Shown: positions 32,801-37,363, numbered from the stretch's first letter. The stretch is 37,519 nt of DNA from Rhodothermales bacterium (GCA_022821875.1 JAJECV010000075.1:1-37519); one strand, 5' to 3'. Notes: generated from the letters alone by a model not told the origin. A program made the numbers and translations.

Positions 32801-32826
32801 TGCACAAATCCCCTGTATATTGAGGT

Positions 32827-32977
32827 TCTTGCAAAACGAACAATCCAGGCTAAAAAGCGCTCCCGGGTGCACTCAGGTGAGCAAAAACCCTCAAGATCAA
32901 GGGTTTTGCAAGAGGCTCTATTATAAGGGACTCTAATTCGAATAATCCCAAAACCGGATTATAGATCTTGAGGGTTT
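32827..32977. repeat. Nested inverted repeats, possible insertion-sequence ends
   Basis: Three inverted pairs lie in 150 bases. TCTTGCAAAAC at 32827-32837 pairs with GTTTTGCAAGA at 32903-32913. AAACCCTCAAGATC at 32885-32898 pairs with GATCTTGAGGGTTT at 32964-32977. A third, ATAATCC with GGATTAT, lies inside the second (about 32943-32962). The block contains no credible gene. The TTGCAAAA core with a GAG..CTC border resembles ends of some IS5-type elements, but I cannot identify the element; it could equally be a protein-binding palindrome cluster. Confidence 0.5.
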
Positions 32978-33196: not shown

Positions 33197-35605
33197 ATGA
33201 GTACAGATATTTCCAGACTTACACAAGCAGGACAAGAGCTTGAAAAGATCCCCGTGTCCTTAAGTTACGACATCATTCGTCTTTTTTCCGAAGGGCTGTA
33301 CCAAAGCCCCCATAAGGCAATTGAAGAACTTGTAAGCAACAGTTATGATGCTGAAGCTAAGAATGTTCATGTCCTGCTCCCCGATCAAAATGATGAGGAC
33401 ATCATTCCTGCTCACCTGTGGGTGATTGATGATGGGCACGGCATGAATGCCCATGAGTTTCATCATCTGTGGCACGTAGCACATTCTACAAAGACCGATG
33501 CGTCCCCTTCTGAGGGGCGGCGTTTACCTATTGGGCAGTTTGGAATTGGAAAACTGGCAGCCTATGTTCTTGCATGGAATCTCATTCACATAAGCCGTGT
33601 TGATGATCAATTCCGCCTGACGGTGATGGACTTTCATGTCATTGAGAAATTGAGCGCAGATAACCCCGGTCCTATCAAGATCTCGCTTCGCGAGATTGAT
33701 GAGCAGACGGCACGATCCTTTTTGTCGGATATAGAAAGACGGGATTCCAATGCATGGGATCTCCTATTCGGAGCTGATCATTTGAACTCCTCTTGGACTG
33801 TAGCTGGGCTATCTGATTTTCGAGGCCTTTACGACAAACTCTCGGTTGGAAGATTGAAATGGGTGCTGAGCACAGGATTGCCCCTTCATACAAATTTCAA
33901 AATATATCTCGATGGTGACGAGATCAAATCAAGCAAGTTAAGGCCGGATCCGCTTGATAATATTTCAATACGTGAGGAACTGAAAATTGGAACCGTCACT
34001 GGTAGTGCTCAAATCTACGAGAACCCCCTGACAGCAGGAAAATCGGTTCGTGTAGGGCGAAGTCACGGATTCTTTATACGTGTCCGTGGACGTGTTATCA
34101 ACTTGGAAGATGCGTTGTTCGGGATTACCCAGCCGAATCACGCGGCGTGGTCACGCTTTACTATGGAAGTCCATGCAGAAGGGTTGCAGACACATCTGCT
34201 GTCATCACGCGAAGGCGTGAGAGATTCTGCTGCTATCCGCGAATTCCGAGAGTATTTACAGCAGACATTCAATCAATGCCGCAGAGTCTATCAAGATTGG
34301 CATCAGAATCAGGTAGATGACCTAGACATCCAGGCACTTTTATCCGACACGCCCAGTCATCATATTCTTGAGCCTTTACTGAGTGGAGTTCAATTCACAT
34401 TAGAATCAGGTGAGGATTCGTTCTATATCTCTGCAACAGGGGACAGCACGGATCAAGATGTGTCCGTACGGTTGGCCGGCCTGCGAGAACAGATCGCTGA
34501 AGAACCATTCAAGACAACGAATTTCGTCCAGCACGGCCCTCATGCTGCCGCAGTACGCTATGAGCCTGGGACGCGTAATCTCGCCGTCAATACTGAGCAT
34601 CCCTTTGTCAATAAACTTACAAACGATGATCGGAATAGAAATCCGGCAAAATTGTTTGCTCCATCCGAAGTGCTTCTTGAAGGGCTCCTAAAAGAGTATG
34701 GGACTAGAAAATCTGTGATTGCAGATATTCTCCAGGCCCGGGATCGCGTCCTGAGACTCATGGCAGGGGAAACATTGCCCACCGCATCAGAAACTCTGAG
34801 ATTGCTCCGCGCAGCCAACCAGAACGAACATGCACTTGAACGTGCTACCGGTTCCGCATTTCGTGTTCTTGGGTTTGAATATGAACGAAGAGGCGGCAAT
34901 AAACCTGGGCCAGATGGCATCCTCTTCGCACACTTGGGGCGGCATGGTGACAATGATCGTGGCTATATGGGCTACAAGCTAGTATACGATGCTAAGCACA
35001 CGGATAAACCGACGGTTCAAGCGGACAAGATTGATCCATCAAGTTTAGAAGACTTTCGTTTGAGAGAATCCGCAGCATACGGTTTCTTCATCGCAGACAA
35101 ATATGCAAGTAAAAATGACTCGGATGGAAAAATTAATCGGAAGATCTTTTCAGAACAATCCTCACAAAATTATGAGTTTCTCACTTTGCTCAAAATTGCC
35201 CATCTTGAGCATTTGCTCAAATTACACTTCCGTCATGGTCTGACTCTGACAGACATCGGAAATATGTTCAAGGAGTGTCGCACAATCATAGAAGTTGATG
35301 ATTGGATCACTAAAATGCAAAGAAAATTCTCGGAAAGCGAAGTGCCTCTGGCCACTCTGGTCGAAATCCTTGAAGGTCTAAAAGAAGATGACAAGGCTGT
35401 ACCGAACGTCAAAGCGGCCCGAATGGTTAATGATGAACTTAAAAAATTCGAGCCAAATCGGCTGATAGCCCGTTTGAAGGCGGTCGAGATAATTATTGGA
35501 GATAGATGGCTGCAAGTAGAAGATTCGGGCGATGTCAAAATGAGTCAGACGGGTATGCAAATCCTTAGAGAGCTTGATCGGCAAATTGGAACACTGGACT
35601 ATTAG
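33197..35605 (+). CDS. GHKL ATPase fused to a PD-(D/E)XK-like nuclease domain
   Basis: An 802-residue protein with a MORC/MutL/Hsp90-type GHKL ATPase at the front: the N box IEELVSNSYDA (Glu44, Asn48), then WVIDDGHGMNAHEF (Asp79, Gly82), and the lid PIGQFGIGKLAAY (111-123). A second-half ATPase/transducer region follows (RVGRSHGFFIRVRGRVIN, LLSSREGVRDS). A coiled region leads to a predicted nuclease at about 545-700: ATGSAFRVLGFEYERRGGN, PGPDGI (Asp573), then KLVYDAKHTDKP with the D-x-K pair Asp598 and Lys600 and a downstream QADKID. Such GHKL-nuclease fusions beside methyltransferases are the prokaryotic MORC-like restriction systems described by comparative genomics. The gene is followed at 26 bases by the methyltransferase and looks intact. 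Nuclease activity is inferred, not shown. Confidence 0.8.
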   Translation: MSTDISRLTQAGQELEKIPVSLSYDIIRLFSEGLYQSPHKAIEELVSNSYDAEAKNVHVLLPDQNDEDIIPAHLWVIDDGHGMNAHEFHHLWHVAHSTKTDASPSEGRRLPIGQFGIGKLAAYVLAWNLIHISRVDDQFRLTVMDFHVIEKLSADNPGPIKISLREIDEQTARSFLSDIERRDSNAWDLLFGADHLNSSWTVAGLSDFRGLYDKLSVGRLKWVLSTGLPLHTNFKIYLDGDEIKSSKLRPDPLDNISIREELKIGTVTGSAQIYENPLTAGKSVRVGRSHGFFIRVRGRVINLEDALFGITQPNHAAWSRFTMEVHAEGLQTHLLSSREGVRDSAAIREFREYLQQTFNQCRRVYQDWHQNQVDDLDIQALLSDTPSHHILEPLLSGVQFTLESGEDSFYISATGDSTDQDVSVRLAGLREQIAEEPFKTTNFVQHGPHAAAVRYEPGTRNLAVNTEHPFVNKLTNDDRNRNPAKLFAPSEVLLEGLLKEYGTRKSVIADILQARDRVLRLMAGETLPTASETLRLLRAANQNEHALERATGSAFRVLGFEYERRGGNKPGPDGILFAHLGRHGDNDRGYMGYKLVYDAKHTDKPTVQADKIDPSSLEDFRLRESAAYGFFIADKYASKNDSDGKINRKIFSEQSSQNYEFLTLLKIAHLEHLLKLHFRHGLTLTDIGNMFKECRTIIEVDDWITKMQRKFSESEVPLATLVEILEGLKEDDKAVPNVKAARMVNDELKKFEPNRLIARLKAVEIIIGDRWLQVEDSGDVKMSQTGMQILRELDRQIGTLDY

Positions 35606-35631
35606 CGTGCATTTTTAGCCACAGTCTGACG

Positions 35632-36801
35632 ATGAAATTGACCACTATCCATCCATTTCCGGCACGCATGGCACCGGAACTTGTGTATGACGCACTCAAA
35701 TTCCTGCCAGTTAAGGGGCGTGTACTTGATCCGATGTGCGGGTCTGGAACGGTTCCCAGACTAGCTGTCGAAGCGGGGCATGAGTGTGTTGGTGTGGACA
35801 TTGATCCACTCTCGGTTTCAATGGCACGAGTATGGACGAGCCGTTTCGATCCAGATCACATCAATGAAGATGCAGAGAATCTTGCTCAAGAGGCGAAGTC
35901 ACTGAACTCCAGTACCATACAGAAACCGGGAGATCCCGAAACCCAGAGATTCATTACATATTGGTTCGCTATGAAGCAGCAAGATGCTCTTGCAAGATTG
36001 GCGACAGTTCTCATGCGCTGTGACCGACCCACGAAACCTGCCTTACTGATTGCACTCAGCCGAATCATCGTGTCCAAGAAAATGATGGCATCTTTAGCAC
36101 GGGACACGTCTCACAGCCGACCTCACAGGGTTGCTCACGAGAATAATTTCAATGTGTATGAAGGTTTCCAGAAATCTGCTCAACTGATAGGCCGAAGACT
36201 TCTTCCCGAACGTATCGTTGGGACCGCAGATATTTTATCCGGTGATGCTCGTACCCTAGACGGAATCAAGGACAGTGGATTTGATATGGTGCTCACATCA
36301 CCACCCTATCTGAATGCAATTGACTATCTACGAGGCCACAGAATGGCCTTGGTTTGGATGGGGCATACAATGAAGTCACTTCGAAAGACACGATCAGAAA
36401 GCGTTGGAGCCGAACGAATACTGCCACAAACCATTGCATCATTTGATATTTCCCCCTTTGTAGTTAAGACCGAGGGGGCAACCCTTAGACAATGCCATTT
36501 AGGGTGGATTCGCAGATATGCAGCTGACATGAAAGCAGTTCTCGATCAAGCATACAGAACACTCAAACCAAATGGGTACTTAATCATGGTTGTCGGTAAC
36601 TCATTCATTCGAGGGGCTAAAGTCAATAATGCAGGATTAATAGAAACGCTGGCAATTGAGAATGGCTTCAAATTCCATGACCGTAGAACCCGCAAAATCC
36701 CGGCACGCCGACGTTACTTACCTCCTCCTGGTAACAGCACGGGTTCCTTAGATACCCGCATGCGCACGGAAACGGTATTAACCCTTCGCCCGGATAAATG
36801 A
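35632..36801 (+). CDS. DNA methyltransferase of the SPPY (N4/N6) type
   Basis: A 389-residue amino-methyltransferase of the type that modifies exocyclic amino groups of adenine or cytosine. The S-adenosylmethionine pocket comes first: HPFPARMAPELVYDAL (motif X-like), then VLDPMCGSGTVPRLA (Asp33, motif I) and GVDIDPLSVSMA (motif II). The catalytic motif IV is TSPPYLNAIDY (222-232), followed after a long insert by LKPNGYLIMVVGNSFI and a C-terminal GFKFHDRRTRKIP segment. So motif I precedes motif IV, as in the alpha/gamma groups. Located 26 bases after the GHKL-nuclease gene, it is the protective partner expected of a restriction-modification unit. The recognition site cannot be inferred. The end at 36801 looks normal. 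Confidence 0.87.
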   Translation: MKLTTIHPFPARMAPELVYDALKFLPVKGRVLDPMCGSGTVPRLAVEAGHECVGVDIDPLSVSMARVWTSRFDPDHINEDAENLAQEAKSLNSSTIQKPGDPETQRFITYWFAMKQQDALARLATVLMRCDRPTKPALLIALSRIIVSKKMMASLARDTSHSRPHRVAHENNFNVYEGFQKSAQLIGRRLLPERIVGTADILSGDARTLDGIKDSGFDMVLTSPPYLNAIDYLRGHRMALVWMGHTMKSLRKTRSESVGAERILPQTIASFDISPFVVKTEGATLRQCHLGWIRRYAADMKAVLDQAYRTLKPNGYLIMVVGNSFIRGAKVNNAGLIETLAIENGFKFHDRRTRKIPARRRYLPPPGNSTGSLDTRMRTETVLTLRPDK

Positions 36802-36862
36802 CGAATACCGGAAGGTTCATGAAATGGAGAAAGGCCGGTGATCCTATTTGAAATAATCCCTG

Positions 36863-36974
36863 TATCACGGTCTAACGACAGTTGTCACACGAGACCGGTA
36901 TTCTGTGAGTCATAGATCCCCAGCGCGGTCCCAGCGGGTATCACTGTCTAACGACAATTGTCACACGGGAGCGG
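36863..36974. repeat. Two 36-nt imperfect direct repeats containing a palindrome
   Basis: TATCACGGTCTAACGACAGT (start of copy 1, 36863-36898) and TATCACTGTCTAACGACAAT (start of copy 2, 36939-36974) belong to 36-nt units that also share TTGTCACACG and a final CGG. The second copy holds the perfect palindrome GACAATTGTC; the first has one mismatch. The spacer is about 40 bases. Two copies with several differences argue against a CRISPR array. They could be operator sites, or duplicated target or end sequence of an inserted element that begins right after copy 2. Confidence 0.7.
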
Positions 36975-37326: not shown

Positions 37327-37363
37327 AATTTGACCTGAAATCAGTAAATTTTCAGGTCAAATT
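37327..37363 (-). terminator. Perfect 14-bp palindrome downstream of the partial minus-strand gene
   Basis: AATTTGACCTGAAA (37327-37340) and TTTCAGGTCAAATT (37350-37363) pair exactly around a 9-base loop. It lies 11 bases past the stop of the minus-strand gene ending at 37375, so it is most simply its terminator; on that strand the stem itself ends in AAATT followed by TCCC, a poor U tract. Alternatively it is a transposon end or binding site. Confidence 0.45.

What the first reader, a model, noticed from the sequence alone, without database searches (positions are those of the whole stretch)
33197..36801. Two-gene GHKL-nuclease plus SPPY methyltransferase unit: best candidate for a little-studied defence system
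An apparently intact 802-residue GHKL ATPase with a C-terminal PD-(D/E)XK-like patch (Asp573, Asp598-x-Lys600) is followed 26 bases later by a DNA methyltransferase with all motifs. Prokaryotic MORC/MutL-like ATPases in restriction-modification contexts are known from comparative genomics but have barely been tested. The specificity, the ATP-driven role of the GHKL domain and the absence of a separate specificity or controller gene make this pair worth study.
Basis: partly seen in the sequence, partly recalled or inferred. Interest (0 to 1): 0.76.

Follow-up and report, generated by a model that had tools for sequence, protein, structure and literature searches.

The report
Two-gene ATPase-nuclease restriction-modification pair
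The two genes form a real, widely shared bacterial restriction-modification unit: a MORC-like ATPase fused to a DNA-cutting domain, and a DNA methyltransferase that probably marks the cell's own DNA, which makes it a minimal test case for how such ATPases drive DNA restriction.

Summary
An intact 802-aa gene (33197-35605) and a 389-aa DNA methyltransferase gene (35632-36801) lie 26 bases apart. R is a GHKL ATPase plus S5/transducer module, closest in fold to MORC/SMCHD1 and Hsp90, with a C-terminal PD-(D/E)XK nuclease (E548, D573, D598-x-K600) that resembles FokI/HindIII-type domains and not the Shedu nuclease. In 58 relatives from a GTDB scan, 45 have a full-length M within 350 bp of R. In a 38-pair tree covering 12 phyla, the R and M trees share 22 of 35 splits (random maximum 2). 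Among 59 near relatives, M occurs only in genomes that have R. The one relative with a mutated catalytic lysine (K600R) also has a decayed M gene; another decayed-M locus keeps an intact R. Best reading: a horizontally acquired, two-gene, ATP-gated restriction-modification system of the paraMORC type (Iyer 2008), a separate variant from VcSduA/Shedu and BbrUII/HgiDII. Some relatives add a Z1-type SF2 helicase, as in Iyer's third operon class and CglI/NgoAVII. Cleavage, methylation, target motif and ATP coupling are inferred.

The parts
33197..35605 (+). R gene, 802 aa: GHKL ATPase - S5/transducer - helical middle - PD-(D/E)XK nuclease - C-terminal tail
33257..33676 (+). GHKL ATP-binding domain (residues ~21-160; E44, N48, D78, G80, GQFGIGKLA 113-121)
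   Evidence: HATPase_c_3 1.7e-17; motif residues invariant 47/47
33902..34231 (+). S5-fold transducer (residues ~236-345) with K282 and the GFFIRVRGRVI motif 291-301
   Evidence: VIA-align rows spanning model residues 21-375 against MORC/SMCHD1 (Z up to 17.5) and Hsp90 (Z about 16); G291 and R299 47/47
34829..35236 (+). PD-(D/E)XK nuclease domain (residues ~545-680; E548, D573, D598-A-K600)
35243..35602 (+). C-terminal tail (residues 683-802), helices with a beta-hairpin 772-782; possible winged-helix DNA-binding element
   Evidence: predicted secondary structure only; identity as a DNA-binding element is inference
35632..36801 (+). M gene, 389 aa, SAM-dependent DNA methyltransferase (amino-MTase type, probably m4C)
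35728..35748 (+). M motif I DPMCGSG
   Evidence: D33, P34, M35, G37, S38, G39 invariant in A3
36109..36129 (+). M SHSRPHR stretch in the helical insertion between motif II and the GDAR/motif IV region; candidate target-recognition element
   Evidence: S162 R163 P164 H165 invariant in 40 sequences; role is inference
36298..36309 (+). M catalytic motif IV SPPY
   Evidence: S223 P224 P225 Y226 invariant in 40 sequences

Best explanation
A two-gene, horizontally acquired restriction-modification system. M (probably an N4-cytosine methyltransferase, less likely N6-adenine) marks a sequence in the host genome. R is the restriction enzyme. Its N-terminal GHKL ATPase and S5 module should dimerise around DNA when ATP is bound, as MORC, MutL and Hsp90 do. 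The C-terminal FokI/HindIII-like PD-(D/E)XK domains then cut DNA that lacks M's mark; ATP binding or hydrolysis gates or repositions the paired nuclease domains so that host DNA is spared and foreign DNA is cut on both strands. R carries its own target recognition, perhaps in the middle region or the C-terminal tail, so no specificity subunit is needed. Shown here: the domains, the catalytic residues, the conserved pairing and co-inheritance of R and M, and base composition consistent with acquisition. Inferred: cleavage, methylation, the shared target, the ATP-gated clamp and double-strand cutting by paired nucleases. The confidence given is for a restriction-modification pair in which R cuts and M protects; I put the specific clamp mechanism at about 0.45.
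For: Pairing: full M within 350 bp of R in 45 of 58 loci found without using M, most downstream on the same strand and many overlapping by 1-4 bp. R and M trees share 22 of 35 splits against a random maximum of 2; Mantel r 0.76, 0 of 2000 permutations. Among 59 relatives M occurs only in G000, G009, G013 and G014, all of which have R. Catalysis: ATPase residues 47/47, K600 46/47, E548 45/47. The K600R case (G012/L029) also has a decayed M gene. Nuclease: AF2 topology; HindIII E 0.008 with D-A-K aligned; Mrr_cat in 5 and FokI_cleav_dom in 3 of 47 members, weakly; hhalign 90.7% with FokI-type domains against 0.1-0.5% for the Shedu nuclease and controls. ATPase module: MORC/SMCHD1 Z about 17, Hsp90 Z about 16. 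Context: some relatives lie beside Type II, Type IIG, Type I or Type IV restriction genes or HEC-01; some carry a Z1 SF2 helicase with Iyer's DThhQXuRhFG motif. Acquisition: R/M GC 0.465/0.483 and GC3 0.44 against GC3 0.57-0.60 in neighbours; patchy within the genus. Precedent: VcSduA E27A and K557A abolish defence (PMC12137116).
Against: No activity has been measured for this family. L070 has an R with intact catalytic residues beside a decayed M, and L063 an intact R with no M found nearby, which a strictly lethal R should not allow. The nuclease fold of the window protein rests on motif, predicted topology and family-profile evidence; direct fold search could not test it because GHKL hits fill the list. 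pTM is 0.45, so the domain arrangement is not known, and no dimer was modelled. No target-recognition domain was identified.
Confidence: 0.77

Rival explanations
1. Shedu-like immune nuclease: R acts alone as a GHKL-regulated nuclease that senses DNA ends or a phage cue, as for the Shedu family, and M is a neighbour or an accessory protector.
For: Same overall architecture as VcSduA (GHKL, middle region, PD-(D/E)XK), which restricts phage as a single protein (PMC12137116). A few R relatives here lack M (L063, L079).
Against: The nuclease is not SduA_C/DUF4263: 0 of 47 members match it in Pfam and hhalign probability is 0.1. The M gene is conserved and co-inherited.
Confidence: 0.1
2. Regulatory or DNA-architecture pair: R is a MORC-like DNA clamp that compacts or silences foreign DNA and M sets an epigenetic mark; cutting is minor or lost.
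For: The ATPase module is closest in fold to MORC/SMCHD1 silencing ATPases. Iyer et al. proposed DNA looping for these proteins (PMC2292703).
Against: Nuclease catalytic residues are under strong constraint (K600 46/47, E548 45/47).
Confidence: 0.06
3. Incomplete system: the window pair needs a missing partner, for example a Z1-type SF2 helicase, and is inactive or incomplete as seen here.
For: Z1 ATPase genes lie near M in 9 of the 58 loci. The contig ends 718 bp after M, so a further gene could lie beyond the window.
Against: No Z1 homologue was found in the fetched loci of the window's clade (L024-L034), including long contigs (L026-L028), so the two-gene form looks like a stable arrangement.
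Confidence: 0.1
4. Selfish addiction module: the pair is kept mainly because losing M is lethal, with little benefit against phage. This is a variant of the main explanation in terms of selection, not of biochemistry.
For: Patchy distribution and trees that cross phyla. K600R goes with M decay in L029.
Against: Restriction and other defence genes beside some relatives.
Confidence: 0.1

Closest known systems
paraMORC R-M operons (Iyer, Abhiman, Aravind 2008, PMC2292703), especially paraMORC3
   Same: N-terminal GHKL plus S5 module, C-terminal restriction-endonuclease-fold domain with an E-D-(D/E)xK pattern, R-M gene neighbourhoods, sporadic distribution; some relatives carry an SF2 helicase with the DThhQXuRhFG motif
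   Different: paraMORC3 was linked to RecB-like nucleases and a subset of its members was standalone; here the nuclease is FokI/HindIII-like and a dedicated amino-methyltransferase is conserved beside it. The original paraMORC sequences were not compared directly.
VcSduA / Shedu type I-D (PMC12137116)
   Same: GHKL ATPase fused to a PD-(D/E)XK nuclease in one protein
   Different: Different nuclease family (SduA_C not matched), and a methyltransferase partner is conserved here
BbrUII/HgiDII family restriction enzymes (NCBIfam NF050001)
   Same: N-terminal region matches the GHKL domain of R (E 1e-12); coupled to a methyltransferase
   Different: Only the N-terminal domain aligns (47.5 bits against a cut-off of 550); the partner methyltransferases there are C5-cytosine enzymes, M.HgiDII for GTCGAC (PMC5867850), here an SPPY amino-methyltransferase
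CglI / NgoAVII stress-sensitive R-M (PMC4267653)
   Same: ATP-driven restriction in a Type II-like setting; Z1-domain SF2 ATPase shared with some relatives of this system
   Different: R there is a PLD nuclease with a B3 domain and the Z1 protein is required for cutting; the window has neither
FokI and HindIII cleavage domains
   Same: Family-profile similarity including the catalytic D-x-K
   Different: No GHKL ATPase in those enzymes (general knowledge); the window protein alone does not reach a Pfam match to either

Membership tests
paraMORC R-M proteins (Iyer 2008) | N-terminal GHKL domain with conserved ATP-binding motifs | tested here: met
paraMORC R-M proteins (Iyer 2008) | S5 domain directly after the GHKL domain | tested here: met
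   MORC/SMCHD1/Hsp90 alignments span residues 21-375 of the model
paraMORC R-M proteins (Iyer 2008) | Conserved neighbourhood with R-M genes | tested here: met
paraMORC3 subfamily | C-terminal RE-fold domain with E-D-ExK | tested here: met
   E548, D573, D/E598-A-K600; predicted topology; HindIII and FokI profile matches
paraMORC3 subfamily | Similarity to RecB-family nucleases, or direct sequence grouping with Iyer's paraMORC3 | not tested
MORC proper | GhXhhpXXRhl signature in the S5 domain | tested here: not met
   strict pattern 0 of 47; relaxed G-h-x-h....R-h-l 47 of 47
Shedu (VcSduA, type I-D) | SduA_C / DUF4263 nuclease domain | tested here: not met
   not among the Pfam matches of 47 members at E<=1; hhalign probability 0.1
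BbrUII/HgiDII family restriction enzymes | Full-length match above the NCBIfam cut-off | tested here: not met
   47.5 bits against 550, N-terminus only
FokI-type cleavage domain | Match to the FokI_cleav_dom family | tested here: inconclusive
   3 of 47 relatives match weakly (best E 0.032); family profile 90.7% probability against two FokI-type sequences, 75% against one; window protein alone no match
Type II-like restriction-modification system | Adjacent nuclease and DNA methyltransferase genes inherited together | tested here: met
Type II-like restriction-modification system | R cuts a specific site that M's methylation protects | not testable with these tools
   needs biochemistry
CglI/NgoAVII-type R-M | Z1-domain SF2 ATPase encoded with R and M | tested here: not met
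   no such ORF in the 718 bp after M, where the contig ends; absent from the fetched loci of the window's clade, present near M in 9 of 58 loci

The most novel reading that the evidence does not exclude
A widespread, unnamed class of two-component ATP-dependent restriction enzymes in which a MORC-like GHKL clamp closes on DNA and pairs two FokI-like nuclease domains, with one largely conserved target sequence across at least 12 phyla (M keeps many invariant residues outside the standard methyltransferase motifs).
Probability: 0.35. Interest if true: 0.72.

Novelty: new variant of a known kind. Interest (0 to 1): 0.52.

Why it matters
What the GHKL/MORC-type ATPase does in prokaryotic restriction has been open since it was described by comparative genomics in 2008. 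This pair is about the smallest natural system in which to ask it: one ATPase-nuclease, one methyltransferase, no helicase or specificity subunit, conserved in at least 12 phyla, and with a natural K600R/M-decay variant. An answer would bear on how eukaryotic MORC ATPases handle DNA. The full-length R family is not named in the Pfam, PADLOC or NCBIfam copies searched here.

Tried and rejected
Single-protein scan of viral contigs with R found nothing; the family alignment found five. Phylum-wide search with the first alignment found only G000 and G012 among 395 genomes at E<=1e-30, so relatives came from the GTDB scan. The second look at M's structural matches returned generic Rossmann methyltransferases, Trm11/Trm14 first, and did not settle m4C versus m6A. 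NCBIfam hits of the nuclease domain were chance-level. A first attempt at a Shedu alignment used wrong frames and was redone. Papers on BbrUII (PMC3815753) and Shedu classification (PMC11805627) are not held. Considered and set aside: MORC proper (signature not met), Shedu (nuclease not matched), BbrUII/HgiDII (N-terminus only). The link between K600R and M decay is one case, and L070 goes the other way, so it is not used as proof.

Full report
THE OBSERVATION. The window is the whole of contig C18 of its genome (37,519 bases). Two intact ORFs are present at the stated places: R 33197-35605 (802 aa) and M 35632-36801 (389 aa), 26 bases apart on the + strand. R matches HATPase_c_3 (1.7e-17) and M matches DNA-methylase families. 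PADLOC calls M a Type II methyltransferase (5e-30) and gives weak N-terminal Type II restriction-enzyme hits for R.

RELATIVES. A search of 148 related genomes found R over most of its length in G000, G009, G012, G013 and G014 only; other matches were to the GHKL part. A scan of GTDB genomes with a short S5-domain motif found 58 relatives, 24-64% identical. The scan did not use M, so M's presence is an independent observation. A complete M homologue lies within 350 bp of R in 45 of 58 loci, often overlapping R by 1-4 bp. Of the rest, some are cut by a contig end or fragmented (L041, L075, L040), one has a truncated R with what reads as its C-terminal remnant just before M, 3.4 kb away (L053), some sit beside a different DNA methyltransferase (L058, L061), and a few have no M (L063, L065, L079). 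Trees of 38 R and M proteins, from 12 phyla, share 22 of 35 splits; random relabelling gives at most 2. Among 59 relatives M is found only in genomes that have R.

R PROTEIN. The tested GHKL motif residues are invariant in 47 sequences. The nuclease residues E548, D573(D/E), D598(D/E) and K600 are conserved in 45, 47, 47 and 46 of 47. The AlphaFold2 model (pLDDT 83, pTM 0.45) shows a helix-strand-strand-strand-helix-strand core at 544-633 with D573 and D598-K600 in the expected places. The ATPase-transducer part (21-375) is closest to SMCHD1 and MORC2/3/4 (Z about 17) and Hsp90 (Z about 16). The nuclease family profile finds HindIII first in the PDB (E 0.008, catalytic D-A-K aligned), weak Mrr_cat, FokI and HindIII hits in Pfam, and 90.7% probability with FokI-type domains against 0.1% with the Shedu nuclease and 0.3-0.5% for two controls (a single FokI-type sequence gives 75%).

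M PROTEIN. Conserved HPFPARMAP (motif X-like), motif I DPMCGSG and TSPPY; the model is confident (pLDDT 92). Distant relatives in archaeal viruses are annotated as PspGI-like or N4-cytosine methylases, and the SPPY motif favours m4C by general knowledge; m6A is not excluded. A helical insertion between motif II and the GDAR/SPPY region carries an invariant SRPH and may recognise the target (inference). Many invariant residues lie outside the standard motifs, which would fit one conserved target across the family (inference). M relatives occur in eight viral contigs, seven of them with no R in the fetched stretch.

NATURAL VARIANTS. In G012 (L020/L029) R is a full ORF but K600 is arginine, and the M gene is a short decayed remnant. 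This is what loss of protection followed by loss of cutting would leave, but it is one case. L070 has a decayed M beside an R with intact residues, a counter-example unless that R is silent or protected otherwise.

SURROUNDINGS. R and M have GC 0.465/0.483 and GC3 0.44, against GC3 of 0.57-0.60 for neighbouring genes, and the pair is patchy within the genus, so it was probably acquired. The nearest upstream genes in the window are a GDSL lipase and an ABC transporter. In some relatives the neighbours include a Type IIG enzyme and a Type II pair (L024), HEC-01 (G009), Type I R-M (L070), a Type IV enzyme (L067) and HerA (L035); only a chosen set of neighbours was scanned, so this is not a test of enrichment.

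THIRD GENE. Nine of the 58 loci carry a Z1-domain SWI2/SNF2-type ATPase near M; the nine include near-duplicate loci L036 and L037. The motif DTYIQRARMFG, which fits the DThhQXuRhFG motif that Iyer et al. gave for their third class of helicase, was found in seven of the eight distinct loci checked (PMC2292703). The same domain is in the N-proteins of CglI and NgoAVII, where ATP hydrolysis is required for site-specific cleavage (PMC4267653). It was not found in the window's clade.

PLACE AMONG KNOWN SYSTEMS. The pair fits the paraMORC R-M systems of Iyer et al. and has paraMORC3 architecture. It is not MORC proper (strict signature 0/47), not Shedu by its nuclease, and not BbrUII/HgiDII by full-length match. 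VcSduA shows that a GHKL-nuclease can restrict phage and needs both activities (PMC12137116).

MECHANISM. Most likely ATP-gated restriction of DNA lacking M's mark, with the GHKL dimer clamping DNA and pairing two nuclease domains. Domains, residues and co-inheritance are shown; the clamp, the shared target and double-strand cutting are inferred.

Noticed in passing
window 32816-32922: A roughly 100-bp element with inverted ends (ATTGAGGTTCTTGCAAAAC / GTTTTGCAAGAGGCTCTAT) just upstream of R has about 39 further copies across the genome at 73-97% identity; it looks like a MITE or REP-type repeat.
   Followed up: partly
window 36862-36898 and 36938-36974: Two 37-nt direct repeats (89% identical, spacing 76) just after M; a 28-nt core of them was found nowhere else in the genome.
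   Followed up: partly
window 37327-37363: Perfect 14-nt inverted repeat with a 9-nt loop near the contig end.
   Followed up: no
L036, L043, L053, L057, L059, L067, L073, L080 (near M): A conserved Z1-domain SF2 ATPase accompanies the pair in some lineages, split in two in L059; in L036 and L057 a 152-153 aa protein without Pfam match follows it.
   Followed up: partly
L103, L105-L110: Viral contigs carry M-family methyltransferases with no R in the fetched stretch, possibly phage self-protection.
   Followed up: partly
L116 2278-7191 (Allorhizobium plasmid): An M homologue stands divergent from a second methyltransferase followed by a protein annotated as sensor histidine kinase, perhaps a two-methyltransferase GHKL arrangement.
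   Followed up: no
L024 577-5619: A 1680-aa Type IIG-like restriction-methyltransferase ORF overlaps the start of R by 4 bp.
   Followed up: partly
L032 3-2518 (minus strand): A second GHKL-like protein overlaps a distant M relative near an R without its own adjacent M.
   Followed up: no
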